Positions 26,959 through 63,715 of a stretch of 64,000 nt of DNA are shown one piece after another; position 1 is the stretch's first letter; each line of letters starts with the position of its first letter. A program made the translations under genes and the position numbers. The notes under the pieces were generated by a model, which had not been told where the DNA came from, searched no databases, and worked only from the letters and a program-made list of their open reading frames with translations. Source of the DNA: Gammaproteobacteria bacterium HGW-Gammaproteobacteria-11 (GTDB lineage Bacteria; Pseudomonadota; Gammaproteobacteria; Pseudomonadales; Pseudomonadaceae); contig PGZJ01000005.1 in NCBI GenBank assembly GCA_002840055.1, positions 342,340 through 406,339 on the forward strand. Reading direction: 5' to 3'.

Positions 26959-27704
26959 TATTTCCCGTGTTTCAGAGAAAGACTCAGTCGTTCCTCAAGA
27001 CCATGGAGTGTTATGTGCTATACCCCAGACTCAAGAACATAGTTGCCTGAATTATCTTGAGTTTCCAAATACCCAAGTTTTGCCGTGAGTGGGTATTCTC
27101 GGGCATTTCCGTATTTGGATCCGGTTGCGTTAGAAAGGTCTTGCTGATCAAACGTTCAACAAAAAAGGCCCAGCATTCGCTGGCGCCTTCGGAGGGCAAA
27201 AATTAATGCATGCGTGCTAAATGTTTTAATTAATGTTGCTAGCTGTTAATAGTGTATTTATCGCATAAAGCATTGATTAGTAACTAAAAATAGGTATCAC
27301 ACTTTGTGCCATTTTATGCCGATTTTGGTGGGCGCTTAACAAGCATCTGTAAGTTTGGCACAAAATACGGCACATAATATGAAGTGGCTTTTGACATAAA
27401 GCTTTTCGTGGATACGCCGTTGTAAGAACGCGAGCTTAACTGGAGCGCTCGTAGCAAGCTGTTCCGGAAAGTCTCGGTCAGGCAGCGTCCAAGGGGGCCG
27501 CGGGTTAAGTTCTTTAGACGCTGAACGCCTGCAATCGGCCAGAAGCGGAATTCCACGGACGTTTATCGAAGCGGTGAGAACTCATTAAATCTAGTACTGC
27601 AAACAAGGGTTATTTTCATCTGCCCCCTATTTATCCTGAATTGATTTATCCTAAAAAAGAAGCGTAGTGTCTGCTGCGAAAGCTTCACCTACGGAGAAGG
27701 ACCA
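26959..27704. other. AT-richer intergenic stretch without a recognisable gene
   Basis: About 750 bp of lower GC than the flanks. I find no open frame that looks like a protein and no RNA gene. It contains a minus-strand terminator-like hairpin (27161-27189) with no gene left upstream of it, which suggests that a leftward gene was lost. The segment marks the change from the flavoreductase operon to the metal-resistance island. Confidence 0.5.
27161..27189 (-). terminator. Rho-independent terminator, leftward
   Basis: Read on the minus strand: GGCGCCAGC, loop GAAT, GCTGGGCC, then TTTTTTG. The stem has one bulge and the T-run is good. No intact leftward gene feeds into it. Confidence 0.6.
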
Positions 27705-49917: not shown

Positions 49918-50532
49918 ATGAACACCAATGTTCCTCGTGAACCCTGGAATAAAGGCAAGCTAGTCGGGCAGAAAGCACCGCTTCGGCTCAGAGATATTTG
50001 GTCCATTCGAGTAAGGCTTCAGATTTCGGAGAAAACCCGAGATCTAGCTCTTTTCAATCTGGCCATCGACAGCAAGTTGCGGGCTTGTGATTTGACGAAG
50101 CTCAGGGTCCGCGACATAGCCCATGGTATGCAAGTGACGCCCCGGGCCATTGTGATGCAGCAGAAAACTCATCGGCCAGTCCAGTTTGAAATCACTGACC
50201 AAACCCGGGCTGCGCTTGAGGCCTGGATACATCAAGCCCAGCTGCGAAATGAGGATTTCCTGTTTCCGAGCAGGCTGCACAGGTCAGATCATCTCTCCAC
50301 TAGACAATATGCTCGGATCGTCAAGGCTTGGGTAACTTCTATTGATCTTGATCCCGCCATGTACGGCACCCACACGCTTCGACGCACCAAAGCGTCACTG
50401 ATCTACCGTAGGACCAAGAACCTAAGGGCAGTGCAGCTTTTACTCGGCCACACCAAGCTGGAAAGCACGGTTCGCTATCTGGGAATCGAAGTGGAAGACG
50501 CTCTTGATATGGCAGAGCATACTGAAGTTTGA
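49918..50532 (+). CDS. Solo tyrosine recombinase (catalytic domain only)
   Basis: A 204-residue tyrosine recombinase without the usual N-terminal core-binding or arm domains. The full catalytic set is present: Arg55 (SKLRACDL), Lys83 (QQKTHRPV), His152/Arg155 (THTLRRT), His178 (LLLGHTK) and Tyr187 (VRYLGI). Nearly identical-style proteins of about 200 residues, beginning NTNVPREPWNKGKL, are widespread on proteobacterial chromosomes; their job is not known to me. It starts 62 bp after the LTA-synthase-like gene and marks the left edge of the recombinase region. Confidence 0.88.
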   Translation: MNTNVPREPWNKGKLVGQKAPLRLRDIWSIRVRLQISEKTRDLALFNLAIDSKLRACDLTKLRVRDIAHGMQVTPRAIVMQQKTHRPVQFEITDQTRAALEAWIHQAQLRNEDFLFPSRLHRSDHLSTRQYARIVKAWVTSIDLDPAMYGTHTLRRTKASLIYRRTKNLRAVQLLLGHTKLESTVRYLGIEVEDALDMAEHTEV

Positions 50533-51046
50533 TCAGCAATAGCGGCGGCTAAAGCCAGGCCGGCGCTATCCCGCCAGAAGCCGCCGGTGAGGAGCGGCTG
50601 CTTTTGGCCGACAGCAGCCCGTCATGAGGGACTGCAGGTGGTCAACTGCTGTTTCAGGATTTCTCCTCAGCATGCCGGATTGGTCTGAGCACTATCTCGC
50701 CGTCAATCAAATCGATACTTAGTGAATCACCGAGACCGACGTACATTTCTGCCAGGATTTTGGTGGGAGCTTAACAATAACATCCCCTGTGTAATGCGCC
50801 GGCATGTTGGCATTTCACAATCGTCCGTACTGTTCCGCTCATGGGAAGTTAGCCTCAATCTTGACCAAAGCTTGTTGTTTACCGAAATCGATATCCTACG
50901 TCAGGGGGCAGGCGATCAACAGCCTTTGGCCGTATCCAGCCTCTTGCAACGATTCGGTGGATCGTATCTAGGATGATGAAAGCCAGTGACAGCACATAGC
51001 TAGCTTGTTAGCCTCACCAGATGACGAAGGTTACGAGTCCTGGTGA
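50533..51046. other. Intergenic region with antitoxin remnant
   Basis: 514 bp between the solo recombinase and the 512-residue protein. It contains the frameshifted AbrB-type antitoxin remnant on the minus strand (50654-50805). The first 100 bp (with GCTGCTTTTGGCCGACAGC) look like intergenic repeat-type sequence. The remaining 240 bp hold no gene that I can support. Confidence 0.5.
50654..50805 (-). pseudogene. Frameshifted AbrB/MazE-type antitoxin remnant
   Basis: From ATG 50805 on the minus strand: MPAHYTGDVIVKLPPK, then after a one-base shift at the AAAA run near 50757: ILAEMYVGLGDSLSIDLIDG followed by EIVLRPIRHAEEKS and TGA. The reconstructed 50-residue protein has the SpoVT/AbrB swapped-hairpin pattern (G.VVLP...L..LGL..GD.L.....DG.IVL.P). 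The span is 152 bp, one base short of a whole frame. No toxin gene is next to it. Remnant of a toxin-antitoxin operon. Confidence 0.6.
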
Positions 51047-52585
51047 TTGATGCATGCAAATAAGCTGAACGCAGAGAACGACGGTGACACTGGCGGTGTG
51101 CTTACGGAGATAGTGGGCAGTTCGCCGTGCGCGACCACTGTGCAACAGATTGAACGACTACTCGGGATCGATCGCGATTTCCCTGCTGCGTTGAATCTGG
51201 TTGAGAAGCTGCTGGGTATTCTTCAAGTAATACCTGTTAAAGATGTATCCGTGTTGGAGTGGGTTCGAGCGCTCGAGTCCGTCCAAGACGCCGGTAAGCT
51301 TAGGAAATATGATCTGTCCTGGACGCGGCTTGCTGCCACCAGTCTTGCAGGCAACCCCTTGGGTGGGAAATTCAAGCGCTATCCCTTGCCAGCGTTTTTG
51401 CTGCAGGAGCCCCTGGCCGAACTTGGTGAACAAGCCAACCTGATACATCGCCTCTTTCTGGAAGTTGCGATTCAACAGAAAACCTTTAGGGGTATTCAAG
51501 CGATTGCGGATGAGTTGAGGAAGTTGATCGCTATCAGCAATCCAAAATCCAGCATGGGTCAATTGCCTACAGACGTGTCTACTGACTGGTCCGCTTGGGC
51601 AGAATATCTTGCAAATCTGCCTGCTAACGATGCCCTTTCAGTAATGCTCAACAAGCTTTTGAGACTGCGTGCCTCCAGTAGCTCTCCGACATCCAGGCAA
51701 ACGTCTCCAATTTCGCTTATCTCTCAAACCGACTCTAATCCGCTCTCTGGTGTTGGCATCAGTGTTGGTCCTACGTATTGCTCTATGGTCATCGAGCCTG
51801 GCGACAGTCAAACGGCTGAACCTCCAAAATCTGTGGATTTGCACCTGACTCCACAAGAGGAAGAAGAGGATGAGCCGGCGTCTGAACACGAGGTTGATGC
51901 CCAGTGCCGCGAGACACGTCATTGGATTTCCCGTCATCAACGCCTAACGCCAAATGATTCCGGTCGGTTAACCCCAATCGAGCGTAGCTGGCTCGCATCC
52001 CGGCTACGAGAGCTCACGGTTAGCGAGGATATCGGCCTGCGATCAGGCGCTGGCATTGTGGCGCTCATGTATGTCACCGGAATGCCCCTAGATGACGTGC
52101 TGCAGGCTGCTGTTGGGCCAGAAGGAACTTTTGACGTCGGCGGAGCGTATCGACGGACTATTCGCCTGCCGAGCAATGCTTACACTCCGAATGCTGATGT
52201 GGCGGAGCAGTTTCTGCCCAGAGAAACGACGTTAATACTCCAGTTGCCCGATATGGTGACGAACTGGATGAGCGCGAACGTTCAGCATCAAAACTGTGCG
52301 TTGGCGCAAGCTTTGGGTGTTGAGCTGAGTAATGCAAAAGAAGATGTCGATAAGGTAATGGAATGCCTTCGTGCTGGGGGCCGTTACACACGGATCCGCC
52401 GCGAACGCATTCGTGCAGCGTTGGCCATTGAACTGAACCTGCGGTATCGCGATTTTGGAGTTGTTCACCATTTGGCGTCCGGCCCAGATCAGGTTGCGCC
52501 GATGATCAATTATTACGTGGTGCATTTCATTGACGATTTGAAGCACCGATACACGGAGGTTACTGAGGATATGCTGCGAGTCTAA
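51047..52585 (+). CDS. Unknown 512-residue protein, probable catalytically degenerate recombinase
   Basis: I do not recognise a named family. The N-terminal 240 residues are helical; residues about 245-300 are a low-complexity acidic linker (LTPQEEEEDEPASEHEV). The C-terminal 210 residues look like a tyrosine-recombinase fold whose catalytic residues are lost: AGIVALMYVTGMPLDDVLQA stands where GLR..EL is expected, and HHLASGPDQVAPMINYYVVH where LGH......YY is expected. The gene runs straight into the 1258-residue recombinase gene (TAATG overlap), so the two are co-translated and the proteins probably act together. The 5' end is uncertain; the ATG at 51053 is near the TTG start used by the longest frame. 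Confidence 0.6.
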   Translation: MMHANKLNAENDGDTGGVLTEIVGSSPCATTVQQIERLLGIDRDFPAALNLVEKLLGILQVIPVKDVSVLEWVRALESVQDAGKLRKYDLSWTRLAATSLAGNPLGGKFKRYPLPAFLLQEPLAELGEQANLIHRLFLEVAIQQKTFRGIQAIADELRKLIAISNPKSSMGQLPTDVSTDWSAWAEYLANLPANDALSVMLNKLLRLRASSSSPTSRQTSPISLISQTDSNPLSGVGISVGPTYCSMVIEPGDSQTAEPPKSVDLHLTPQEEEEDEPASEHEVDAQCRETRHWISRHQRLTPNDSGRLTPIERSWLASRLRELTVSEDIGLRSGAGIVALMYVTGMPLDDVLQAAVGPEGTFDVGGAYRRTIRLPSNAYTPNADVAEQFLPRETTLILQLPDMVTNWMSANVQHQNCALAQALGVELSNAKEDVDKVMECLRAGGRYTRIRRERIRAALAIELNLRYRDFGVVHHLASGPDQVAPMINYYVVHFIDDLKHRYTEVTEDMLRV

Positions 52586-55500
52586 TGAGTACGTCAACGG
52601 TTACTGGTTTCTTTCCGGAGTCTCAGGTGATTTCCAGCTTACCTGAGATCAGTCTGACGCGTTTGCAATCAGCCATTCATGGCAAAGGGAGCCTTGCGGA
52701 GCAGCATAACGCATTCACTGACTATTGCCTTGCGCTGCTTTTTTGCTGCACAGGACATCGTGGCGTTAAAGACCCCTTCAGCGAGCTAAAACACTTTGAT
52801 TTTGACCGAGGGTTACTGCTTATTTGCGACAAGGTCAGCGATGAGTCGCGGGCTTGGCGGCTGGTTTCACTACCAGATACGGCGGTAGAACAAGTAAGTG
52901 TTTATTGTAATTATTTGCGCCTGTTGGCATCTCAACTTGAGGGGGGCTCGCCTCTTGGTGAATTGTCGGCGCTGATCTGGGATGTATCTCAGGGCAACGC
53001 CCGGATACCGTTCTTTTTCTATCTGCAGGAAAGTTGTAACGGTTGGGAGCCGGTCACGCCGGCAACTCTCTCAAAGCGCTGGCAAGACCGCTGGACATTG
53101 CCGGTGAATTTTCTTCGCCATGTGATGGCAGACACGCTGTTGCATCTTACTCGTCGGGCTGACTGGGTCAGCATCCAGCTAGGGCATGCCGACGGAGTCG
53201 ATCATCCATTTGGAGCGACATCGACGAAACCAGCGTTGGACACCTTGGGCCAGATCCGTCCTTACTTGGAAGAGGGGTTAAAGAAAATTGGATGGACAGT
53301 GGCCCGATCACCTTTGCATGGCTCTCGAATCAGACACCGGCCTGTAAAGCGGTCATGGCTTAATACCTCTTCAGAAGCGTTGTTTGGCTACCAGCGACGT
53401 GAGGCTGTGCGTAAGGGAAAACGTTCAATCGCTGCAACATTCTTCAGAGAGCTGTGGAGTGAGCAGTTTCCCACAGGTGCTGCTTTGAACCGGACAGCGG
53501 TCCAGCGCATAGTTGAACAGATTATTATTCAGGCACAAACTAGAGGACACTCGGTAAATTGGTGTCTCAGGCTTCTCTATAGTCACCTGCGTTCCCGTCC
53601 AGGTGGGCTAGCAATACTCCGCCAAATTGCGCGATATCGTCAGATAGAAATGGAACCCACGCCATTTCATGCCGGTTCACTCACCGACTATCAGGCAGGT
53701 CAGTGCATTAGAGCCGCATATTTGGGCTACCTAGAGCAACAGGGGAAGAATGAGGCCTCATTGGATGTGCATGTTCGGTTTGCGGAGATTGTGGTTAGCG
53801 CGGCCATTTTTAGTGGAATCGCTAATGCGGACAGGCTGAAAGTCCTGGGAAGCGCTCTGCTAACGCAAACCTACCTTCTGAAGCGCTCCGTGTTTGTCGA
53901 TGTGCCCTTAGGTCATGGAGCAGTCTTCAGGTGGTTTCCTGATCAGGTATCGCAGAAACTCATCTATGGTTTGTTCCGAGCCGAAACCGCAGGCCAGAAG
54001 ATACAAGAAAACAAGACGAGGAAAGCTTTGAACTCGCTGGTTTGCGAGCTTGTGGGTTCAGCTGGCGGGTGTCCTTATGATCGTTTGGTCCGTATCTCGA
54101 GAGCGGTCTCGGGAATAGAAATGCCGGGCTACATTTCGTCTTGTCTCAGTGGTGTTATACCGGCCGTATCGCTTCCGTTGCCTCAATGGGTGCGAGTGGT
54201 AACGGGTAAATCATTAACGTCTGGCGGCGAACCAGCCGCAAATCAGCCAGACAAGTCCGATAACTGGACACCCGTTATAAAAAATTCGAAACGGCAACAC
54301 ACTGCCGGGGAGGGACGGGCTTTTTTACGGGAGTTTCGTCGCCTGATTTCTGCTGCCCGGAACACTAAACGTACTGGTAACCAGCTAGCGCGTACCCGTA
54401 GCAAGCGTGAGCTCGTGAAGACGTTGCAGCTAGCCTGCGAAAGTTCAGGCTGGTCCGCCCTTCAGATGATGCTCGCAGGCTGGACGGTCCATCTATGTCG
54501 GCATGGAACGCGGAGCAAAAAAGTTCTGGCCTATTCCACGGTTGAAAAATACTCCGTCCTCGTGGCATCAAGGCTGGTTCCAGTGAGCGTAAATCTTGAT
54601 GTCTATGCCCTGGATGAGGTCGCGTACGAGGAGATGTACCTGCGCGCTGTTGAGCGTGAAGAGCCCAAACGCCGGTTTGAATTAGCCTGCCGATTACGCG
54701 AAATACATGCTTTCTTTCAAGATGTTTATTTGATGGAAGATCTGGACTGGTCCGCCATTATGGGAGCTGCTGGTGGCCCTGCTCAGACCCGTTTTGCAGA
54801 AGCAAATATCATCACTTCTGCGGAATATCGGCGTGCTTTGACTGCGCTAGTCGACGACGTGTCTCTGGGGGAGCGTCGCCGATGGCAGTATGCTGGGCTT
54901 TTACTTCTGGGATTTCGGTTCAACTTGCGTTTTGGAGAGGCGCTAAGATTGCGTTTTACCGACGTGCAGCGCGACGGGGAACAGGTTTATGTTTGGGTGC
55001 ATAACTCTATTTTTGCTGAGACAAAATCACATGCGGGTGTTCGGGTTGTACCTCTGATAGAACGACTGGATGCGCTGGAAACACGCGTTTTGGACCGGTT
55101 GTTGGCTGCAGGCGAATTTGACTTTGATGATAATCCCGCTGCTATGCTTATGGCTGAGCATTCTGGGGCAGCGGAGCTGATTGATCTAGCGGAGGCTGGG
55201 CGTGTTCTAAACGGTTTGCTTCGTCGAGTGACGGGTGATAGCAGTAGCCGCTTTCATCATCTGCGCCATGGTTGGGCGACACGAGCGGTGGCGTCTCACA
55301 TTGGCTTGGTAACCCCCGGTTTTTATGAGCAGCTATCCGAAGCTGTCTGGCCAGAATTTTATGGTAGTGACGCGGGGTTTCCGCTCCGGAGTATTGCCGT
55401 GGCTGCTGGTCATGCCAATGAGAGCACTACTCTGGGTAGTTACACACACTGCGCTGACCAAATGGTGTCAGATTATTTACCCGAGCCCCAGCTCTCAGAT

Positions 55501-56361
55501 CACACGGTGGCTTATGCAGAGCAGATAGCCTACGCCACAGTCCGGACACGGCGTCGAGGCTCGCGTAGGGCATCTGAGGGACGCCTGCCTGCGATACCGA
55601 AGCCTGCGATTGCTACTCGGACGCCCCAGGTTGCCACCCTCTCAGGCCTCATATGTCAGTCGCTGGAGACTGGGCCTCCTAGTCTAACGGACGTTGACAT
55701 GCTGCTGCGCAGACTCCGGAATAGCGTGCAGTCCGTAGATGTAGTGGCGAGAACGTTGGGCCTGAACATACAAGCGTCTAGGCGCGCGGTAGACCGCGCG
55801 TTGAGTTTGGAGGTTCGAACCGGATATGACGGCTATCGGCTGGCAACGCGTTCTGACGATTTTTTAGCTTGGGCCGTTAGCGACAGAAAAGCTCGGCAAT
55901 TCAAGCGTGAGGATGACAATGTAATCGAGCGCCTTAGGGTACTTGATCGCCAGATAAGAATGTCTTCGCCACCAGAGTTGGATGAAATATTGTCTGGATT
56001 GCGAGCATTAGAGGAGACAGTTGATGCCAAGAGTGGTGACTACTATGTGGTCCGGGTAGAGCAGTTGAGCTCAATAGCAAAGCTCGCAGCACTACTTGAT
56101 GCCCGCGTCAGCGCGGCAGTATCAGCCTTGATAAACACCTGTGCGCTGCGTGAATTGCTTCAGGTCCATGGTGTGGAATGGCGTTATTGGAACACTAGGC
56201 GGGCCGGACTAAGGCTCAGCCTGACCCCTGCCAGCGGACCGAAGCGCACGTTACAGCGCCTGCTACTAATAATTGCGGTGGCGATTCCCGACAAGTATCA
56301 AACAGTTGCTGTTGCGGATATCAAGTCTGATGACAGTGCTGCAGGCTCCGCCGTTTCCTGA
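52585..56361 (+). CDS. Giant tyrosine recombinase with two recombinase-like domains
   Basis: A 1258-residue protein, three to four times the usual integrase size. Residues about 40-215 already look like a recombinase catalytic domain: Arg59 (CTGHRGVKDP), Lys83, Asn175xxArg178 (VNFLRH), His201 (QLGHADG), but no tyrosine follows. Residues about 600-960 contain a core-binding-like part and a complete catalytic set: Arg782 (NLRFGEAL), Lys814 (TKSHAGV), His891/Arg894 (HHLRHGW), His943 (AAGHANES) and Tyr953 (GSYTH). About 300 further residues follow, helical, function unknown. Probably the active recombinase of a mobile module, translationally coupled to the 512-residue gene. Confidence 0.8.
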   Translation: MSTSTVTGFFPESQVISSLPEISLTRLQSAIHGKGSLAEQHNAFTDYCLALLFCCTGHRGVKDPFSELKHFDFDRGLLLICDKVSDESRAWRLVSLPDTAVEQVSVYCNYLRLLASQLEGGSPLGELSALIWDVSQGNARIPFFFYLQESCNGWEPVTPATLSKRWQDRWTLPVNFLRHVMADTLLHLTRRADWVSIQLGHADGVDHPFGATSTKPALDTLGQIRPYLEEGLKKIGWTVARSPLHGSRIRHRPVKRSWLNTSSEALFGYQRREAVRKGKRSIAATFFRELWSEQFPTGAALNRTAVQRIVEQIIIQAQTRGHSVNWCLRLLYSHLRSRPGGLAILRQIARYRQIEMEPTPFHAGSLTDYQAGQCIRAAYLGYLEQQGKNEASLDVHVRFAEIVVSAAIFSGIANADRLKVLGSALLTQTYLLKRSVFVDVPLGHGAVFRWFPDQVSQKLIYGLFRAETAGQKIQENKTRKALNSLVCELVGSAGGCPYDRLVRISRAVSGIEMPGYISSCLSGVIPAVSLPLPQWVRVVTGKSLTSGGEPAANQPDKSDNWTPVIKNSKRQHTAGEGRAFLREFRRLISAARNTKRTGNQLARTRSKRELVKTLQLACESSGWSALQMMLAGWTVHLCRHGTRSKKVLAYSTVEKYSVLVASRLVPVSVNLDVYALDEVAYEEMYLRAVEREEPKRRFELACRLREIHAFFQDVYLMEDLDWSAIMGAAGGPAQTRFAEANIITSAEYRRALTALVDDVSLGERRRWQYAGLLLLGFRFNLRFGEALRLRFTDVQRDGEQVYVWVHNSIFAETKSHAGVRVVPLIERLDALETRVLDRLLAAGEFDFDDNPAAMLMAEHSGAAELIDLAEAGRVLNGLLRRVTGDSSSRFHHLRHGWATRAVASHIGLVTPGFYEQLSEAVWPEFYGSDAGFPLRSIAVAAGHANESTTLGSYTHCADQMVSDYLPEPQLSDHTVAYAEQIAYATVRTRRRGSRRASEGRLPAIPKPAIATRTPQVATLSGLICQSLETGPPSLTDVDMLLRRLRNSVQSVDVVARTLGLNIQASRRAVDRALSLEVRTGYDGYRLATRSDDFLAWAVSDRKARQFKREDDNVIERLRVLDRQIRMSSPPELDEILSGLRALEETVDAKSGDYYVVRVEQLSSIAKLAALLDARVSAAVSALINTCALRELLQVHGVEWRYWNTRRAGLRLSLTPASGPKRTLQRLLLIIAVAIPDKYQTVAVADIKSDDSAAGSAVS

Positions 56362-56448
56362 GAACGTTAGCGCATAGTCGATAATAGCTTGATCTTTAGG
56401 TGCTGGAATTTCAACGTATGCCCGGTGATAGGCTTTTTCTATTCATGT

Positions 56449-57264
56449 CTAGTCAACCAGCGAACCTTGGACAGGAACGTCTATTGTTCGGAGTATCTCT
56501 TGCAGCGTTCCGCCCCGCATTCTGCGTGTCCCGTTCTCTATCTGGTACGAAGGAGTCACACGCAACTCGACAGATTTGCGGTGTAACTGAGCATCAAGCA
56601 ATCGCTCTCTGAAATGCCCACTCCGCGGAATGTGCAGCTGGGTGCACTGACCGTCAGGCCCGCGGAGTAGCATGGTCCTGGCCTTATCATTTACCGCTAA
56701 TACCTCTCCGCTTAATTCTAGGTCCCGGCTGTCCAGAAGAATCTCACTAGATCCGCGCTTCGGGACGAAGCTGAAGCTGGTAGGGCTGTCCGGATCAACC
56801 TCGACTCCAGACGCTGGCAGGTGGGTTCGCAAAACTGCAGCCAGCTCAGCTATCTCCTTTGGAGCTCTGATGTTCGATTCGGAGCTTTGTTCTGGATCGC
56901 CTGAGCTGATTGAGATTAGCTCCGCAGGCAGAGAGGATGCTGCGACCTGGCGCACGACCTGACTTGCGTCGCGGAACTGCTGCAGGATTGCGTCAGCGCC
57001 GCTTGATCCAAAGGGCAATTCGGGGTGCCCGAAAATAGCCACCAAGATGCTCTCCACTCGCTTCCCGTCCGTTTGCTCAAGAGCCTGTAGACGAACTTGA
57101 TCGCCCATTTTGCGTTGGAGCCTTGCCGCTAAGGATTCCAGGTCTTTGAGCTCACTGCGCTTTTTCGCATCTATAACCGGCCAAGTGATGTGCTCATCTT
57201 GGCGCACAGCGCCGGAAATATTGGCGCGCAGAAGTGTGACTTTATGAGTATTACTGTTTTGCAT
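56449..57264 (-). CDS. Unknown 271-residue protein opposite the giant recombinase
   Basis: No family recognised. The N-terminal half is helical (KRSELKDLESLAARLQRKMG; ADAILQQFRDASQVVRQVAA), the C-terminal half strand-rich (GEVLAVNDKARTMLLRGPDG; ELRVTPSYQIENGTRRMRGG). No signal peptide or membrane segment. It converges on the giant recombinase gene (88-bp gap) and belongs to the same module by position and similar base composition. It could be an accessory or regulatory protein, but nothing in the sequence shows it. Confidence 0.6.
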   Translation of the reverse strand: MQNSNTHKVTLLRANISGAVRQDEHITWPVIDAKKRSELKDLESLAARLQRKMGDQVRLQALEQTDGKRVESILVAIFGHPELPFGSSGADAILQQFRDASQVVRQVAASSLPAELISISSGDPEQSSESNIRAPKEIAELAAVLRTHLPASGVEVDPDSPTSFSFVPKRGSSEILLDSRDLELSGEVLAVNDKARTMLLRGPDGQCTQLHIPRSGHFRERLLDAQLHRKSVELRVTPSYQIENGTRRMRGGTLQEILRTIDVPVQGSLVD

Positions 57265-58350: not shown

Positions 58351-59556
58351 TTACTGGGTCCCGTGATTTGTTGCTTTAACATGCTTGCCATCAGTCGCAT
58401 GGGGTAAAAGCAGCAAGTCCAGTAATGCCAGGGCCTGCTGGTAGATGCCTGGGCAGCGTGCCTCACTGGGACCGGCGACATTAAGTTTGGCTGGTCTGTG
58501 CGTGGTGCGCCAGGCGAGCCATTGACTCAGGATTTGATCTGTAGGGGTATCCAGATTCAACGGTCGGCAGGCTTTGCCGAATTTGTTGGCAAACTCCTGT
58601 GTCAACCGGCTGCCGCCCTCAAGCACGCCGCGATAGATGATCAGTGTGGCATCACTGTGCTGGACGTTAAGCTTGTTGCGTTGGCGGTAGCCGTTAGATT
58701 CCGTTTCGCTCAGCTGGTAGCGCCGGTCCAGTACTCCGTCAGCCGCTATCCGTCCTGCAGGACACCAACCGCCATGTTCAAGGTTGTTGGTGATGGCCCA
58801 GTCAAGGGCGGCGCGGTCGACGCCGGTCTGTCCGCCAGACATCAGCAGGGTTGGCCGCTCGGGAAACATGGATAGGATTTCACTCACCGATAGCAGTGTC
58901 GGGCAACCGGTCATTTCCAATGTATCAATCCACAACTGGTTACCCTTGCGGATGATCTGATCAGCACCAATATGGCCTGAAACCACGGCTGTAATGCCAT
59001 GGATGTGTGTCGTGACTGGCTGATAGCTGCGTGACCAGTCCCACGTGCAGCGTTTGGCCAGCGACTCAGAAAATATCAATGAGTCCAGGCTCTGCCAATC
59101 GTCCATCGGGCTTTGCGCATGCACAATGCCAATGTCACCGCGCGGATGTTCGATTGTCAGTGTGAGGGGGAGGTTTTGCTGGATACGCACAGCTAGCGTA
59201 CGGACTTGATCGGGCGAGAGATTATCAGTCCAGCAACCACCCATCTGGCGACGCTTCTGCGCGAGTTCTGGGCGTTCCTGTGCAGCCAAGAGCATCAGTT
59301 CATGGTTGCCCGCCACGCTGTAACAAAAAGGCGAATCAAGCACCCAGTTCAGCGTTTCCAGTGAGCAGGGACCGCGGTCGGTCAGATCGCCAAGGAGAAT
59401 CAGTCGGTCAATTTGTGGGTTGAAGCCGGCCTTGTTGAGTCTCTCCTTCAGCAGTGGCAGATGACCGTGCAGGTCTGAGCAAACCCAGTCGGTACCTTGA
59501 CTATTGGCTGCAAGCCTGTGGTTTACAGCCAGTGCTGGTTGAAGTGGAGCGTTCAT
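58351..59556 (-). CDS. Ser/Thr-phosphatase-like domain fused to molybdenum-carrier-like domain
   Basis: A 401-residue fusion. Residues about 24-225 are a calcineurin-like phosphoesterase: Asp28-Leu-His30 (CSDLHGH), Gly-Asp57 and Asp60-Arg (LLGDLTDRGP), Asn84-His85 (AGNHELM), HAQSP and SGHIGADQ complete the metal-site set, closest to bacterial PrpA/lambda phosphatases. Residues about 235-375 match the putative molybdenum-carrier (YpsA/LOG-like) family: MSGGQTGVDRAALDWAI, GGWCPAGRIAADGVLD, YQLSETESNGYRQRNKLNV, SDATLII. The remaining C-terminus is unassigned. Cytoplasmic. The link between the two activities is unknown. Confidence 0.8.
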   Translation of the reverse strand: MNAPLQPALAVNHRLAANSQGTDWVCSDLHGHLPLLKERLNKAGFNPQIDRLILLGDLTDRGPCSLETLNWVLDSPFCYSVAGNHELMLLAAQERPELAQKRRQMGGCWTDNLSPDQVRTLAVRIQQNLPLTLTIEHPRGDIGIVHAQSPMDDWQSLDSLIFSESLAKRCTWDWSRSYQPVTTHIHGITAVVSGHIGADQIIRKGNQLWIDTLEMTGCPTLLSVSEILSMFPERPTLLMSGGQTGVDRAALDWAITNNLEHGGWCPAGRIAADGVLDRRYQLSETESNGYRQRNKLNVQHSDATLIIYRGVLEGGSRLTQEFANKFGKACRPLNLDTPTDQILSQWLAWRTTHRPAKLNVAGPSEARCPGIYQQALALLDLLLLPHATDGKHVKATNHGTQ

Positions 59557-59648
59557 CTGGAAAGACCTCTAGTTGCCCGTAAATCGGTCCGGTCATGCCA
59601 TCAAATGCTTAGCGTGAAGCCCGCCGCAGTACCGCTGTCATTGGCATC

Positions 59649-60047
59649 TCACCAAGTGCTATTGAGCAAACTTTCAATTCGGCGATAGGTTTCGACAAGG
59701 TCCTGCATGCTGCCCTGGGCAATAACATCGAGCGGCGCACGTCCATCAAAGAACGCATTATCGTTGGGTCGCGCCATAAAACCGTATACGTTTGCCGGGT
59801 TTTCAAAAAGCGTACGCATGGCTGCGTGGATGTTCAGCACGATACTGATGCGCATAAGCTGCTCGCCGTCCAGTTTGGGTGGAGCATTGCCGGCGGTGAC
59901 TTGATCCAGCGCGTACCGAGAAATGCGCAATATTTTCTGAATCTGGCTTCGTCTGGCTTTCCAACCCTTTAGGATTGTAATAGCCGTACGTAAGCCAATT
60001 ATGTGCTTGTCTTTTTCGCTAGGCAGGCCAGTTTCTTGCGCAACCAT
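59649..60047 (-). CDS. MbcA/ParS/Xre-type antitoxin-like protein
   Basis: 132 residues. The N-terminal half is a short helical DNA-binding-like part (AITILKGWKARRSQIQKILR, ISRYALDQV). The C-terminal half resembles the DUF2384/ParS toxin-binding domain: IVLNIHAAMRTLFENPANVY and GFMARPNDNAFFDGRAPLDV, followed by LVETYRRIESLL. Such proteins pair with RES-domain toxins. No RES toxin gene lies adjacent, so here it may act alone or with the next gene. Confidence 0.7.
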   Translation of the reverse strand: MVAQETGLPSEKDKHIIGLRTAITILKGWKARRSQIQKILRISRYALDQVTAGNAPPKLDGEQLMRISIVLNIHAAMRTLFENPANVYGFMARPNDNAFFDGRAPLDVIAQGSMQDLVETYRRIESLLNSTW

Positions 60048-60104
60048 AATCTTGCTGCTCTTTATGTGAGTGACTTAAACGCAAACCCTAATCCTGGCAC
60101 CTGC

Positions 60105-60416
60105 TCAGAAAACATAGCCTTCGATCAGCCTGATCAGATCGGCGATGACCTCATCGCGTGTATTTGCGCCGGTTTTGATGCAGTGCAGCGGTGTCTTCCC
60201 ACTCAGGCGGGTCAGGGGTTTTTGTAGATAATGCTTTGCTTCTGCAGTACTGCCAAACACCAGTAGGCTGAGCGCCAGAGTTTCTGTGGCGTCAATGTCT
60301 GCAAGCAGATTGTTGCTGGTCGGGTCATCAAGGCCTTCCAGCAGGCGGGGTACCTGTCCAATCGACATTTCAAAATCCGCCAGCAGCGACGCCGCCAACC
60401 CATCACGAATTTCCAT
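60105..60416 (-). CDS. Small ParS-like (DUF2384-like) protein
   Basis: 103 residues. The C-terminal half (LVFGSTAEAKHYLQKPLTRL, SGKTPLHCIKTGANTRDEVI, ADLIRLIEGYV) has the layout of the antitoxin toxin-binding domain: W/Y-L..P...L.G..P........ ..V...L..IE.G. The N-terminal half is helical without a clear helix-turn-helix. It lies 57 bp upstream of the second ParS-like gene in the same direction, and both may be descendants of one antitoxin type. Assignment is by pattern only. Confidence 0.5.
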   Translation of the reverse strand: MEIRDGLAASLLADFEMSIGQVPRLLEGLDDPTSNNLLADIDATETLALSLLVFGSTAEAKHYLQKPLTRLSGKTPLHCIKTGANTRDEVIADLIRLIEGYVF

Positions 60417-61119: not shown

Positions 61120-62049
61120 TTAGGGCGGTCTTGGCAGCCAGTAGGTGCTGGCAGGGCCTGGGCCATCCGACTTGGCAAAGGTCTGCCAGTCGGGTTTGCT
61201 GCTGAACGCCCGATGTCGGTTGTCAGCGGCTGCACTCATCACGTCAGCTTGGCGGATCGTCAGCGCGATGGGCATCATCGGCCTTTGCTGGCGGGGGTGC
61301 AGTATCCAGCCGAACAGATAGCGCAGTGCGTTGGCGCCATCGGACCAGACGCTATCCAGATGAGTCAAAGCGGGCACAATTAGTTCGAATCCAATCAGTT
61401 CATGGCTGATCAGATACCCGGTTTCTGTACGTCGCCCGTCGGCATGAAAGCAGCTTACCTTGCCCAAATCATGCAGCAGACCCACCACGGCGGCCAGCCA
61501 GCGTTCATGTTCGGCAAAACTACTGCTGACTGCATACACTGCTTTCGCAACTTCCAGGCTATGCTGCGCCAGGCCACCTTTATGGCAGTGGTGGTGATTG
61601 CTGCTGGCAGGCAGGCTGAAAAATCTACAGCCAACAGAAGGTTGCCCCAGTACCTGATAGACAAAGGCTTTGAGTGGCGTATAGGGACAGGGTTGAAGCC
61701 ACTGCTCGACAGCCATCACTTCATCCACCGAAGCAATCAGGCTGGCAGGCAAATGGCTCAGCGACTGAAAGCTCTCCGGGGTAACCAACTGCCCGCTGGA
61801 TCCAAGCAAGTGATTGCCATATCGACTTACCCGAATACTCACGGCAACCAGACCACTGGTGGGCCAGTTGCCGGGGTGGTCATGCAGTTCAAGCAATACC
61901 TCATGGCTGCCGGAGAGATTTTCGATGCTTAGAAATATCCCGGCGTTCAGTGGCGATACCTGATAGGCCTGCTGGGCAATCAGGCAGCCCGTCAGCCAGA
62001 AGGTATCCTGGAGTGGTTCCTGCATAGCAGGCAGTATGGACTGACTCAT
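61120..62049 (-). CDS. HD-domain protein (TraI_2-like)
   Basis: 309 residues from ATG 62049, which overlaps the preceding gene by TGATG. An HD phosphohydrolase-like core is visible: NHHHCHKGGLAQHSLEVAKA and VVGLLHDLGKVSCFH, with the His...His-Asp pair, then LISHELIGFELIVPAL. The fold resembles the HD domain of TraI_2-type proteins of integrative conjugative elements. The C-terminal part (SKPDWQTFAKSDGPGPASTY) is short. Possible role in element DNA processing or nucleotide hydrolysis. No relaxase motif is seen. Confidence 0.7.
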   Translation of the reverse strand: MSQSILPAMQEPLQDTFWLTGCLIAQQAYQVSPLNAGIFLSIENLSGSHEVLLELHDHPGNWPTSGLVAVSIRVSRYGNHLLGSSGQLVTPESFQSLSHLPASLIASVDEVMAVEQWLQPCPYTPLKAFVYQVLGQPSVGCRFFSLPASSNHHHCHKGGLAQHSLEVAKAVYAVSSSFAEHERWLAAVVGLLHDLGKVSCFHADGRRTETGYLISHELIGFELIVPALTHLDSVWSDGANALRYLFGWILHPRQQRPMMPIALTIRQADVMSAAADNRHRAFSSKPDWQTFAKSDGPGPASTYWLPRPP

Positions 62050-62294
62050 CAGGCAGCCCCCCACTGATTCAGTGTGCGTTCCAACCGTTCCAGAAGGTAG
62101 GGCAAAACTGCACGCCCGCATTCTTCCTCGAACTGCGGCAGTGTTTCCCTGACCCAGGTTTCCAGTGCCGCCAGATTGCTCGACTCTGTTCCTTGGCCGA
62201 TCAGAAAAACCAATGCATCGCCTTCTGGGATTTGTAGGGCAGCCTGCATGGCGCTGGCCAGACGGTGGCATGTATTGTTGGAGAATTCATGCAT
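62049..62294 (-). CDS. Small hypothetical protein between integrase and HD-domain gene
   Basis: 81 residues from ATG 62294, starting 8 bp inside the integrase gene and ending in a 3-4 bp overlap with the HD-domain gene. The sequence (HEFSNNTCHRLASAMQAALQ; EEECGRAVLPYLLERLERTL) is helical and acidic. No family recognised. The overlaps show that it is part of the integrase-HD operon. Confidence 0.6.
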   Translation of the reverse strand: MHEFSNNTCHRLASAMQAALQIPEGDALVFLIGQGTESSNLAALETWVRETLPQFEEECGRAVLPYLLERLERTLNQWGAA

Positions 62295-63489
62295 GGTCGT
62301 GCTCCTCATCTGCAAGCTGGCTCGTGTTCAGCGTCTGTAGCAGCAATCGCTCCATCGCCGAGCCGTCGCGCCGGGTCAGGTTCGGCACATAGCGGGAATA
62401 CACACGAAACAGCATTTCGGTAGTGGTGTGGCCCATTTGCCGGGCAATCCATTCAGGGGCTTCGCCAGCGGCTAGCCACAGCGTCGCCGCTGTATGCCGC
62501 GTCTGGTAGGGTCTGCGCTGGCGCAGCCCCAGATGCCGAAGCAGCGGATACCAGACGCGTTGAGTGACATTGCGATGTGCAACCGGACTGCCGTTGCGGG
62601 TACAGAACACATACTCGAACTGACCAGTGGCCTTCTTCTGTTCCTGCAGCGCGTCATATACTGGGCCTGACATATCGATAGTGCGAAATGAGCCGTCGTT
62701 TTTGGTGTAGACCAGCTCATCTCTGACCAGCGCCTGTCGAACCAGAATCTGCCGCCTTTCAAAATCCACGAACTGCCACTGCAGTCCGTCGATCTCGCCG
62801 GTGCGCATGCCGGTGAAGAACCGCACGGTGTAATAGTTGCGGTAGTCCTCGCGAACCGTCTGCAGAATCAGTCTTACCTCCTCAACCGTAAAAGGCTCGA
62901 CATCGGTTCTTGGCACCTTGAGAGACTTGATGCCCTGATAGGGTGAGGTAAACTCATGCCGGTCGGCTGCTTCATTAAGAATCATGCGCAAAGGCGTCAT
63001 GATGTGGTTGATTCGCTCTGCTGACAGGGGTTTGCCTTTACCGTTTCTGACTTTGGCGAGATGGGAACGGAAAGACAAAACCTCTGCCTTGGTGATGGAG
63101 CCGACCTCCTTCTCACCAAACGCTGGCTTCAAATAGGCGCGCAAGGTGCCTGCGACAGTCTCTATATGGGAGCGTCGCCATTGAGCCTGCATTTCGGCAA
63201 ACCAGGTATCAGCAAAGTCGCTGAACAGTGGCGTGGCGTGCTGCATCAACACTGTTCTGGGTGCATTAGCTTCACTGAACTTGCGCGCATTGCTGCTGCC
63301 CGGGAAGTACCGTGCATACTCGAAGGTGCCAAGGGTTATCTCGGCTTCGATCTTTTTCAGAATAGCCTCGAGCTTGCGACGGTTGGCCGGCGTGTCATCC
63401 AGTGCCGTCTGTTCGCGACAACGTTTGTTTCTGTAGCGGAAATCGAAGAACAGTTTTCTTGTCTGTTCTCGTACACGGATACTAGCCAT
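62287..63489 (-). CDS. Site-specific integrase (tyrosine recombinase)
   Basis: 400 residues from ATG 63489. The N-terminal arm-binding part (MASIRVREQTRKLFFDFRYR, LEAILKKIEAEITLGTFEYA) is of the DUF3596 type. The SAM-like core-binding domain spans about residues 85-195. Catalytic residues: Arg in FFTGMRTGEIDGLQW, Lys in VYTKNDGSFRTIDM, Arg in YQTRHTAATLWLAAG (Tyr in place of the first His of HxxR, normal for this group), His in RQMGHTTTEM and Tyr in RVYSRYVPNLTRRDGSA. Its start overlaps the excisionase-like gene by 8 bp. It drives integration of the element filling the right end of the window. Confidence 0.9.
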   Translation of the reverse strand: MASIRVREQTRKLFFDFRYRNKRCREQTALDDTPANRRKLEAILKKIEAEITLGTFEYARYFPGSSNARKFSEANAPRTVLMQHATPLFSDFADTWFAEMQAQWRRSHIETVAGTLRAYLKPAFGEKEVGSITKAEVLSFRSHLAKVRNGKGKPLSAERINHIMTPLRMILNEAADRHEFTSPYQGIKSLKVPRTDVEPFTVEEVRLILQTVREDYRNYYTVRFFTGMRTGEIDGLQWQFVDFERRQILVRQALVRDELVYTKNDGSFRTIDMSGPVYDALQEQKKATGQFEYVFCTRNGSPVAHRNVTQRVWYPLLRHLGLRQRRPYQTRHTAATLWLAAGEAPEWIARQMGHTTTEMLFRVYSRYVPNLTRRDGSAMERLLLQTLNTSQLADEEHDHA

Positions 63490-63715
63490 GCATGACACCT
63501 CCATTAGCCATGGGGATAGCCAGAGGACGGCTGGATGTGCCGCCCATGTCGCGTTCAATGGTTTCCCATATGTAGAGGATTTTGCGTCCACCAAAGGGAC
63601 GGATGTAGTGAATGCCTTCGAGCAGCACACTGTCCTTGAGGCGGTCGCGAATTGTTCTGGCGTCATACTTGATGCGAGCGGCTAGCTCATCAGTAGTTAG
63701 GTAAAGCTGTGACAT
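63482..63715 (-). CDS. Excisionase-like helix-turn-helix protein
   Basis: 77 residues. MSQLYLTTDELAARIKYDAR, TIRDRLKDSVLLEGIHYIRP, FGGRKILYIWETIERDMGG is the winged-helix layout of AlpA/Xis-type proteins. It precedes and overlaps the integrase gene, as directionality factors of phages and integrative elements do. It probably bends att DNA and favours excision. Confidence 0.75.
   Translation of the reverse strand: MSQLYLTTDELAARIKYDARTIRDRLKDSVLLEGIHYIRPFGGRKILYIWETIERDMGGTSSRPLAIPMANGGVMHG

What the first reader, a model, noticed from the sequence alone, without database searches (positions are those of the whole stretch)
51047..57264. Multi-recombinase module: 512-aa partner, 1258-aa giant recombinase and a 271-aa companion
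Two translationally coupled genes encode a protein that looks like a dead recombinase and a 1258-residue protein with two recombinase-like domains, only the second with a full R-K-H-R-H-Y set. A third gene of unknown function faces them. Sizes and domain order do not match Tn554 TnpABC, RIT recombinase trios or gamma-mobile-trio modules as I remember them. It may be an undescribed self-mobile module.
Basis: partly seen in the sequence, partly recalled or inferred. Interest (0 to 1): 0.8.

Follow-up and report, generated by a model that had tools for sequence, protein, structure and literature searches.

The report
Three-part recombinase at genomic-island ends
Two neighbouring genes encode the two pieces of a long three-part DNA-recombining protein whose relatives often sit at the end of DNA islands inserted into tRNA genes; it may be an undescribed island-mobilising system, but that it moves DNA by itself is not shown.

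Summary
In detail: A (511-512 aa) and B (1258 aa) overlap as TAATG; B has two tyrosine-recombinase domains, only the second with R-K-H-R-H-Y; A is probably a degenerate recombinase (weak fold match). In 34 aligned sets the same 1,738-1,950-residue, three-domain protein is split after domain 1 (5, the window among them), after domain 2 (18), or unsplit (11). Domain 3 keeps the catalytic residues; domain 2 keeps R, K, R, H but has Asn for one His and no conserved Tyr; domain 1 keeps only a Tyr (34 of 34).

In 21 of 42 loci a tRNA anticodon-loop sequence (Asp, Arg or Met) lies 118-470 bp upstream of the module. Occupied and empty sites show insertion for one relative; four islands of 53-77 kb were delimited. 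The window itself is no tRNA case: its left junction (50600) is a palindromic intergenic repeat, and no right end was found. All five islands examined also carry an Arm-type integrase (window 62287-63666), so autonomy is unproven. The 271-aa gene is not a conserved part. No searched family library covers the architecture; nine literature searches listed no description of it.

The parts
50600..50611 (.). Left junction of the mobile stretch: GCTTTTGGCCGA, part of a palindromic dispersed intergenic repeat
   Evidence: G021 and G007 chromosomes match the window from the left up to 50610 and 50617; the G021 module copy, in another context, matches from 50600 rightwards. Repeat copies: 10 in G000, 6 in G021, 4 in G007, 4 in G027, reversed-pattern control 0.
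51047..52585 (+). Gene A: N-terminal piece of the three-domain protein, with degenerate recombinase domain 1 (about residues 280-512, invariant Tyr490)
52585..56361 (+). Gene B: 1258 aa, domains 2 and 3
52672..53289 (+). Domain 2 in B: R, K, N, R, H conserved, catalytic Tyr absent
54292..55479 (+). Domain 3 in B: complete catalytic set R782 K814 H891 R894 H943 Y953
56449..57264 (-). 271-aa facing gene, variable companion or cargo; only a sub-threshold AraC_binding_2 hit
   Evidence: 70% identical in G021; no other homologue in ORFs of 41 fetched loci; no detected relation to the third genes of relatives
62287..63666 (-). 459-aa Arm-type phage-like integrase, candidate partner or rival driver of the island
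   Evidence: Pfam Arm-DNA-bind_2 and Phage_integrase; homologues in 12 of 41 other family loci and in all five islands examined
49918..50532 (+). 204-aa single-domain recombinase gene of the left flank, 68 bp before the junction; outside the element
   Evidence: Pfam; same place in G021 and G007 without A/B

Best explanation
A and B are the two pieces of one three-domain tyrosine recombinase that typically marks the distal end of integrative genomic islands and takes part in their site-specific recombination. Shown: the three-domain architecture with two alternative split points and an unsplit form; a full catalytic set kept only in domain 3; in half of the loci, a module start 118-470 bp inside a junction in a tRNA anticodon loop; an occupied-against-empty comparison for one relative. 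Inferred: domain 3 cleaves and rejoins at the island end, domains 1 and 2 act as non-cleaving protomers that hold the att arms and build the synapse, and the Arm-type integrase of the same island does the other part of the reaction or shares it. In the window, the stretch entered a palindromic intergenic repeat at 50600, beside a chromosomal 204-aa recombinase gene.
For: 34 sets: 5 split after domain 1, 18 after domain 2, 11 unsplit. Domain 3 R, K, R, H, Y 34 of 34, H891 28 of 34; domain 2 R, K, N, R, H 34 of 34; domain 1 Tyr 34 of 34. Anticodon-loop core within 1 kb upstream in 21 of 42 loci: Asp 4, Arg 7, Met 10. Conserved blocks of close relatives start at these cores. G016: left flank found in 36 of 37 genus genomes; of 25 loci pulled, 15 have an intact tRNA-Asp behind it (empty), one is the occupied G016 site, nine show no exact core; the restored tRNA end in G016 aligns to the empty site of G024 at 86%. 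Islands with matching tRNA ends in G008, G011, G427, G319.
Against: The window and G021 copies have no tRNA core, no right end was found for the window, and in G021 the module lies 15.6 kb inside a probable tRNA-Arg island, not at its end. 21 of 42 loci show no such core; of the 12 loci with an Arm-type integrase in the fetched stretch only 3 (L031, L033, L076) have one. The Arg core variants were chosen after seeing the loci. All five islands examined also hold an Arm-type integrase. Nothing shows activity.
Confidence: 0.58

Rival explanations
1. The Arm-type integrase alone moves these islands, as a classical tRNA integrase; A/B is a conserved distal-end gene with another job (direction control, copying, exclusion of other elements) or a passenger.
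For: One Arm-type integrase in each of G427, G319, G008, G021, G011 (only the two ends of G008 and G011 were read). It lies about 1.1 kb from the restored tRNA in G319 and 2.7 kb in G008, and about 1.2 kb and 0.6 kb from a tRNA-Arg right end in L040 and L036, the usual place of a tRNA integrase (PMC2647930, one passage). Comparison loci of 366,716 bases held one hit, in L151, between two modules of G370 (that set also contained L149, inside the G427 island).
Against: It does not explain why the module starts 118-470 bp from the opposite junction in 21 of 42 loci, nor the invariant catalytic residues of domain 3. In G427 the integrase is about 22 kb from one end and 47 kb from the other, and in G011 it is near the module. 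No Arm-type integrase was seen in the fetched stretches of 29 of 41 loci, though these are short.
Confidence: 0.25
2. The window copy is a relic or hitchhiker: its junction at 50600 was made by the neighbouring 204-aa recombinase or by exchange between repeat copies, not by A/B.
For: The 204-aa gene lies 68 bp from the junction and the same site carries different DNA in G021 and G007. A second copy in G021 (83% at protein level) is also followed by different DNA. No right end found.
Against: The same left boundary occurs in G021 away from that gene; A and B are intact and B is under purifying selection.
Confidence: 0.12
3. It is a strongly diverged member of a named system: GInt, SE, RIT, Tn554-type or gamma-mobile-trio.
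For: Shared theme: several recombinases at one element end, one lacking catalytic residues, coupled genes; in SE and GInt a dead recombinase-fold partner (Tfp, GinC) is present (PMC10214605, PMC5385486).
Against: Different gene number, sizes and order, natural fusion of all three domains, different targets. Presumed GMT proteins: best profile match E 0.0007 at 26% probability, over a short stretch of the catalytic region. GInt, SE, RIT and Tn554 sequences were not compared.
Confidence: 0.07

Closest known systems
GInt (ginABCD), PMC5385486 (outline and parts 1-3 of 6 read)
   Same: Several recombinases at one end of a cargo island, one (GinC) lacking a catalytic Arg; site-specific junctions; cargo starts right behind the last module gene.
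   Different: Three separate recombinase genes plus ginD; sites at gene ends such as ssb, not tRNA anticodon loops; no fusion of three domains reported in the parts read. Sequences not compared here.
SE (intA-tfp-intB-srap), PMC10214605 (outline, passages, Background part 1, Discussion read)
   Same: Coupled recombinase genes with a recombinase-fold protein lacking catalytic residues and one large recombinase.
   Different: Two active recombinases, four genes; here one complete domain, two degenerate ones. Sequences not compared here.
Gamma-mobile-trio (GmtX, GmtY, GmtZ); defining paper not held, names from NCBIfam and recall
   Same: Multi-gene recombinase module of islands; occurs in the same genus.
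   Different: No NCBIfam match for A, B or nine proteins of relatives; no convincing profile match.
RIT and Tn554 (TnpABC), as summarised in PMC10214605
   Same: Several tyrosine recombinases encoded together.
   Different: RIT: three proteins of 315-410 aa, all with catalytic Tyr; Tn554: TnpA and TnpB active plus TnpC. Here 512 + 1258 aa with one complete domain.
Classical tRNA islands with one phage-like integrase (for example PFGI-1, PMC2647930, one passage)
   Same: Junction inside a tRNA gene; an Arm-type integrase is present in each of the five islands examined.
   Different: A/B is at the other end and has three recombinase-like domains.

Membership tests
Tyrosine recombinase superfamily (B, domain 3) | Catalytic R-K-H-R-H-Y in a recombinase fold | tested here: met
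Tyrosine recombinase superfamily (B, domain 2) | Recombinase fold with full catalytic set | tested here: not met
   Fold by profile met; Asn for His in 34 of 34 and Tyr position Tyr in 13 of 34, Thr in the window
Tyrosine recombinase superfamily (A) | Recombinase fold | tested here: inconclusive
   13 best fold matches are recombinases, E 0.13-2.2; no sequence family match; profile against domains 2 and 3 weak
Gamma-mobile-trio | GmtX, GmtY, GmtZ homologues | tested here: not met
   No NCBIfam match; GmtY model exists; that NF040692 is GmtX and that a GmtZ model is held is recalled or inferred; profile comparison with presumed GMT proteins of L065 and L066
GInt | ginABCD: three recombinase genes plus a small helix-loop-helix gene | tested here: not met
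   Gene organisation only; sequence homology to Gin proteins not tested
SE | intA-tfp-intB-srap with 6-bp footprint | tested here: not met
   Gene organisation only; NF040692 (recomb_assoc), which could correspond to a Srap-like or GmtX protein, absent from G000; footprint not tested
RIT | Three adjacent recombinases of 315-410 aa, all with catalytic Tyr | tested here: not met
   definition from PMC10214605
Tn554-type | TnpA, TnpB, TnpC | tested here: not met
   Gene organisation only; sequences not compared
tRNA-integrated genomic island | Junction in a tRNA gene, with an empty site in relatives | tested here: not met
   Met for the relative in G016 but not for the window copy

The most novel reading that the evidence does not exclude
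The module has a split active site: domain 1 gives the one catalytic-type residue it keeps, the invariant Tyr490, to domain 2, which keeps R-K-R-H invariant but has lost its own conserved Tyr, while domain 3 is a second, complete site. One polypeptide (or the A/B pair) would supply several protomers of the four-protomer synapse, with the island's Arm-type integrase as remaining partner: an obligate mixed assembly that works on anticodon stem-loops from both island ends.
Probability: 0.12. Interest if true: 0.85.

Novelty: new variant of a known kind. Interest (0 to 1): 0.6.

Why it matters
Islands that carry several recombinase genes and no other known mobility genes also carry defence systems, and a survey of E. 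coli says it is not clear how they move (PMC10121019, passages read). Here is a family with defined protein parts, mapped ends, one empty-site comparison and natural split and fused variants, present in 29 of 390 genomes drawn from the order (own genome included, E up to 1e-5). It makes the role of catalytically incomplete recombinase partners, which SE and GInt elements also have, testable by point mutation.

Tried and rejected
Gamma-mobile-trio: no model match (GmtY model), no convincing profile match. Defence genes: no PADLOC match to A, B or the 271-aa protein. Phage or plasmid origin: no relative of a B-based profile in viral contigs, none of a fused relative in phage or plasmid records, none of A in plasmids; B had three weak hits in the plasmid collection, two of them to pairs of about 740 + 1,000 aa in Vibrio cyclitrophicus and Ketogulonicigenium vulgare. 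A shared third gene: the facing genes of 274-299 aa in fused relatives are related among themselves but not detectably to the 271-aa gene. Right end of the window copy: no second repeat copy downstream at up to 7 of 27 mismatches; the flank that follows the same site in G007 has only a 46-base match in G000. The G021 left flank is an insertion-sequence end, so it gave no empty site. Scan with the domain-2 alignment: too diverse. The first genome-contig scan found no relative; a closer alignment gave two loci, one with the length and match positions of the G013 contig and named Pseudomonas neustonica SSM26. The dN/dS printed for the Arm-type integrase is invalid (stop in the relative's reading) and unused.

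Full report
What is there. Gene A (51047-52585, ATG at 51050) and gene B (52585-56361) overlap by one base, TAATG. A 271-aa gene (56449-57264) faces them. A has no hit at E up to 1 in Pfam, PADLOC or NCBIfam and 0.18 at best in PHROGs; B hits Phage_integrase in Pfam and two integrase families in PHROGs. The window lies in contig 33 of a draft genome, 76% complete.

Relatives. B matched 18 of 144 relatives and 29 of 390 genomes of the order at E up to 1e-5; A matched 4 of 390 at E up to 1e-3. All three counts include the window's own genome. G021 has A and B at 95% and the 271-aa protein at 70% identity; G013 has A at 38% and part of B at 41%. In many relatives the start of B and the rest of B lie in two genes (738-875 and 995-1137 aa), often behind a smaller gene of roughly 140-230 aa; in others all lies in one ORF of 1755-1916 aa.

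One protein, three domains. I laid the module genes of 34 loci end to end and aligned them. Of the 42 loci used below, 8 were left out (L023, L031, L036, L041, L077, L078, L079, L086: partial or near-duplicates). Five are split after domain 1 (columns 930-931), eighteen after domain 2 (columns 1238-1277), eleven are unsplit. Domain 3: R782, K814, R894, H943, Y953 are 34 of 34 and H891 28 of 34. Domain 2: R59, K83, R178, H201 are 34 of 34, N175 stands for His in 34 of 34, and the likely Tyr position is Tyr in 13, Phe in 7, Thr in 5 (the window among them), others in the rest. Domain 1: only Tyr490 is 34 of 34. The domain-2 profile finds XerC-like and XerD structures (1.3e-6, 7e-5 and 9.7e-5); the B profile finds Tn1549 integrase over domain 3 (4.3e-5). 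The B model (986 residues, pLDDT 82, pTM 0.76) matches XerH and Cre, best E 3.6e-5, with high rmsd. The A model (pLDDT 77, pTM 0.47) has recombinases as its 13 best matches, E 0.13 to 2.2. Profile matches of domain 1 to domains 2 and 3 are weak (probability about 6%). That A is a degenerate recombinase is likely, not proven.

Where the modules sit. An anticodon-loop core lies within 1 kb upstream of the first module gene in 21 of 42 loci: tRNA-Asp 4, tRNA-Arg 7, tRNA-Met 10, the nearest copy 118-470 bp away (Met type 118-196); one Arg core (L029) is in the opposite orientation. Whole loci held 5 Asp, 16 Arg-variant and 17 Met matches on both strands of 757,753 bases, so most lie in these upstream stretches. 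Loci include near-duplicates, and the Arg variants were chosen after seeing the loci, so this is not 21 independent events. Conserved blocks of close relatives begin at these cores. In G016 the left flank runs through the 3' half of tRNA-Asp and then into the element. The same flank occurs in 36 of 37 genus genomes; of the 25 loci pulled, 15 show it followed by intact tRNA-Asp, one is the occupied G016 site, nine show no exact core in the stretch. The restored tRNA-Asp end in G016 lies on another contig and aligns to the empty site of G024 at 86%.

Islands. From matching tRNA ends: G008 71.1 kb and G011 77.1 kb (tRNA-Asp), G427 71.0 kb (tRNA-Arg, a window-type module), G319 52.8 kb (tRNA-Met); no empty site was compared for these four. 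G021 has a probable 48.5 kb island between tRNA-Arg sites; its module begins 15.6 kb inside it. In G021, G427, L036 and L040 the right end shows an intact tRNA-Arg and, 103-137 bp on, a second core with half a tRNA.

The window copy. G021 and G007 chromosomes match the window from the left up to 50610 and 50617 and then differ; the G021 module copy matches from 50600 rightwards with another left flank. The shared GCTTYTGGCCG belongs to a palindromic repeat. So the left boundary is real, but no tRNA. Window-type relatives L023, L062 and L069 do have a tRNA-Arg core; L143 has a core-like sequence; L063 has none. No right end was found up to the contig end.

The second integrase. The Arm-type integrase at 62287-63666 has homologues (37-82% identity) in 12 of 41 other family loci and one in each of G427, G319, G008, G021, G011 (only both ends of G008 and G011 were read). 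Only 3 of the 12 loci have an upstream tRNA core. In 366,716 bases of comparison loci there was one hit, between two modules in G370; that set was not free of island DNA. I therefore do not claim that A/B moves an island alone.

Literature. GInt and SE papers were read in the parts named under Closest known systems; the gamma-mobile-trio paper is not held. Nine full-text searches listed no paper on this architecture; most subscription papers are not in that library.

Verdict. A new multi-domain variant among multi-recombinase island systems: strong evidence for the family architecture, good evidence for its place at island ends in half of the loci, moderate evidence for its role, none for activity or autonomy.

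Noticed in passing
window 27185-27541: 357 bp, 88% identical to the left end of the G021 tRNA-Arg island, with the core CCTTCGGAGGGC: a second island end in the window, without an A/B module beside it.
   Followed up: partly
window 49918-50611 and L107 12577-13167: A 204-aa single-domain recombinase gene followed by hairpin-like DNA and then different DNA in G000, G021, G007 and a second G021 copy: looks like a hotspot of its own.
   Followed up: partly
window 50600; 10 places in G000: Palindromic dispersed intergenic repeat CTTYTGGCCGAYAGCAGCC (up to 2 mismatches), with none in the reversed-pattern control.
   Followed up: partly
L022 31-8809 (G021): About 8.8 kb of extra DNA inside the non-coding left end of the G021 module copy, with a short repeat of CGTACTGT-like bases at both sides, as after a transposon insertion.
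   Followed up: no
G021, G427 (L150), L036, L040 right ends: An intact tRNA-Arg(CCG) followed 103-137 bp later by a second core and half a tRNA-Arg: the elements may carry a spare tRNA gene.
   Followed up: partly
G370 C1 577768 and 613462 (L075, L076): Two fused modules in the same orientation, 35.7 kb apart, each behind a tRNA-Met core: possibly tandem islands.
   Followed up: no
window 61120-63666: An HD-domain gene next to the Arm-type integrase; the same pair lies beside modules in L022, L031, L033, L034 and L085.
   Followed up: no
window 58351-60416: A calcineurin-like phosphatase fused to a SLOG-type (cpYpsA) domain and two ORFs with the Xre/MbcA/ParS antitoxin domain, possible cargo.
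   Followed up: no
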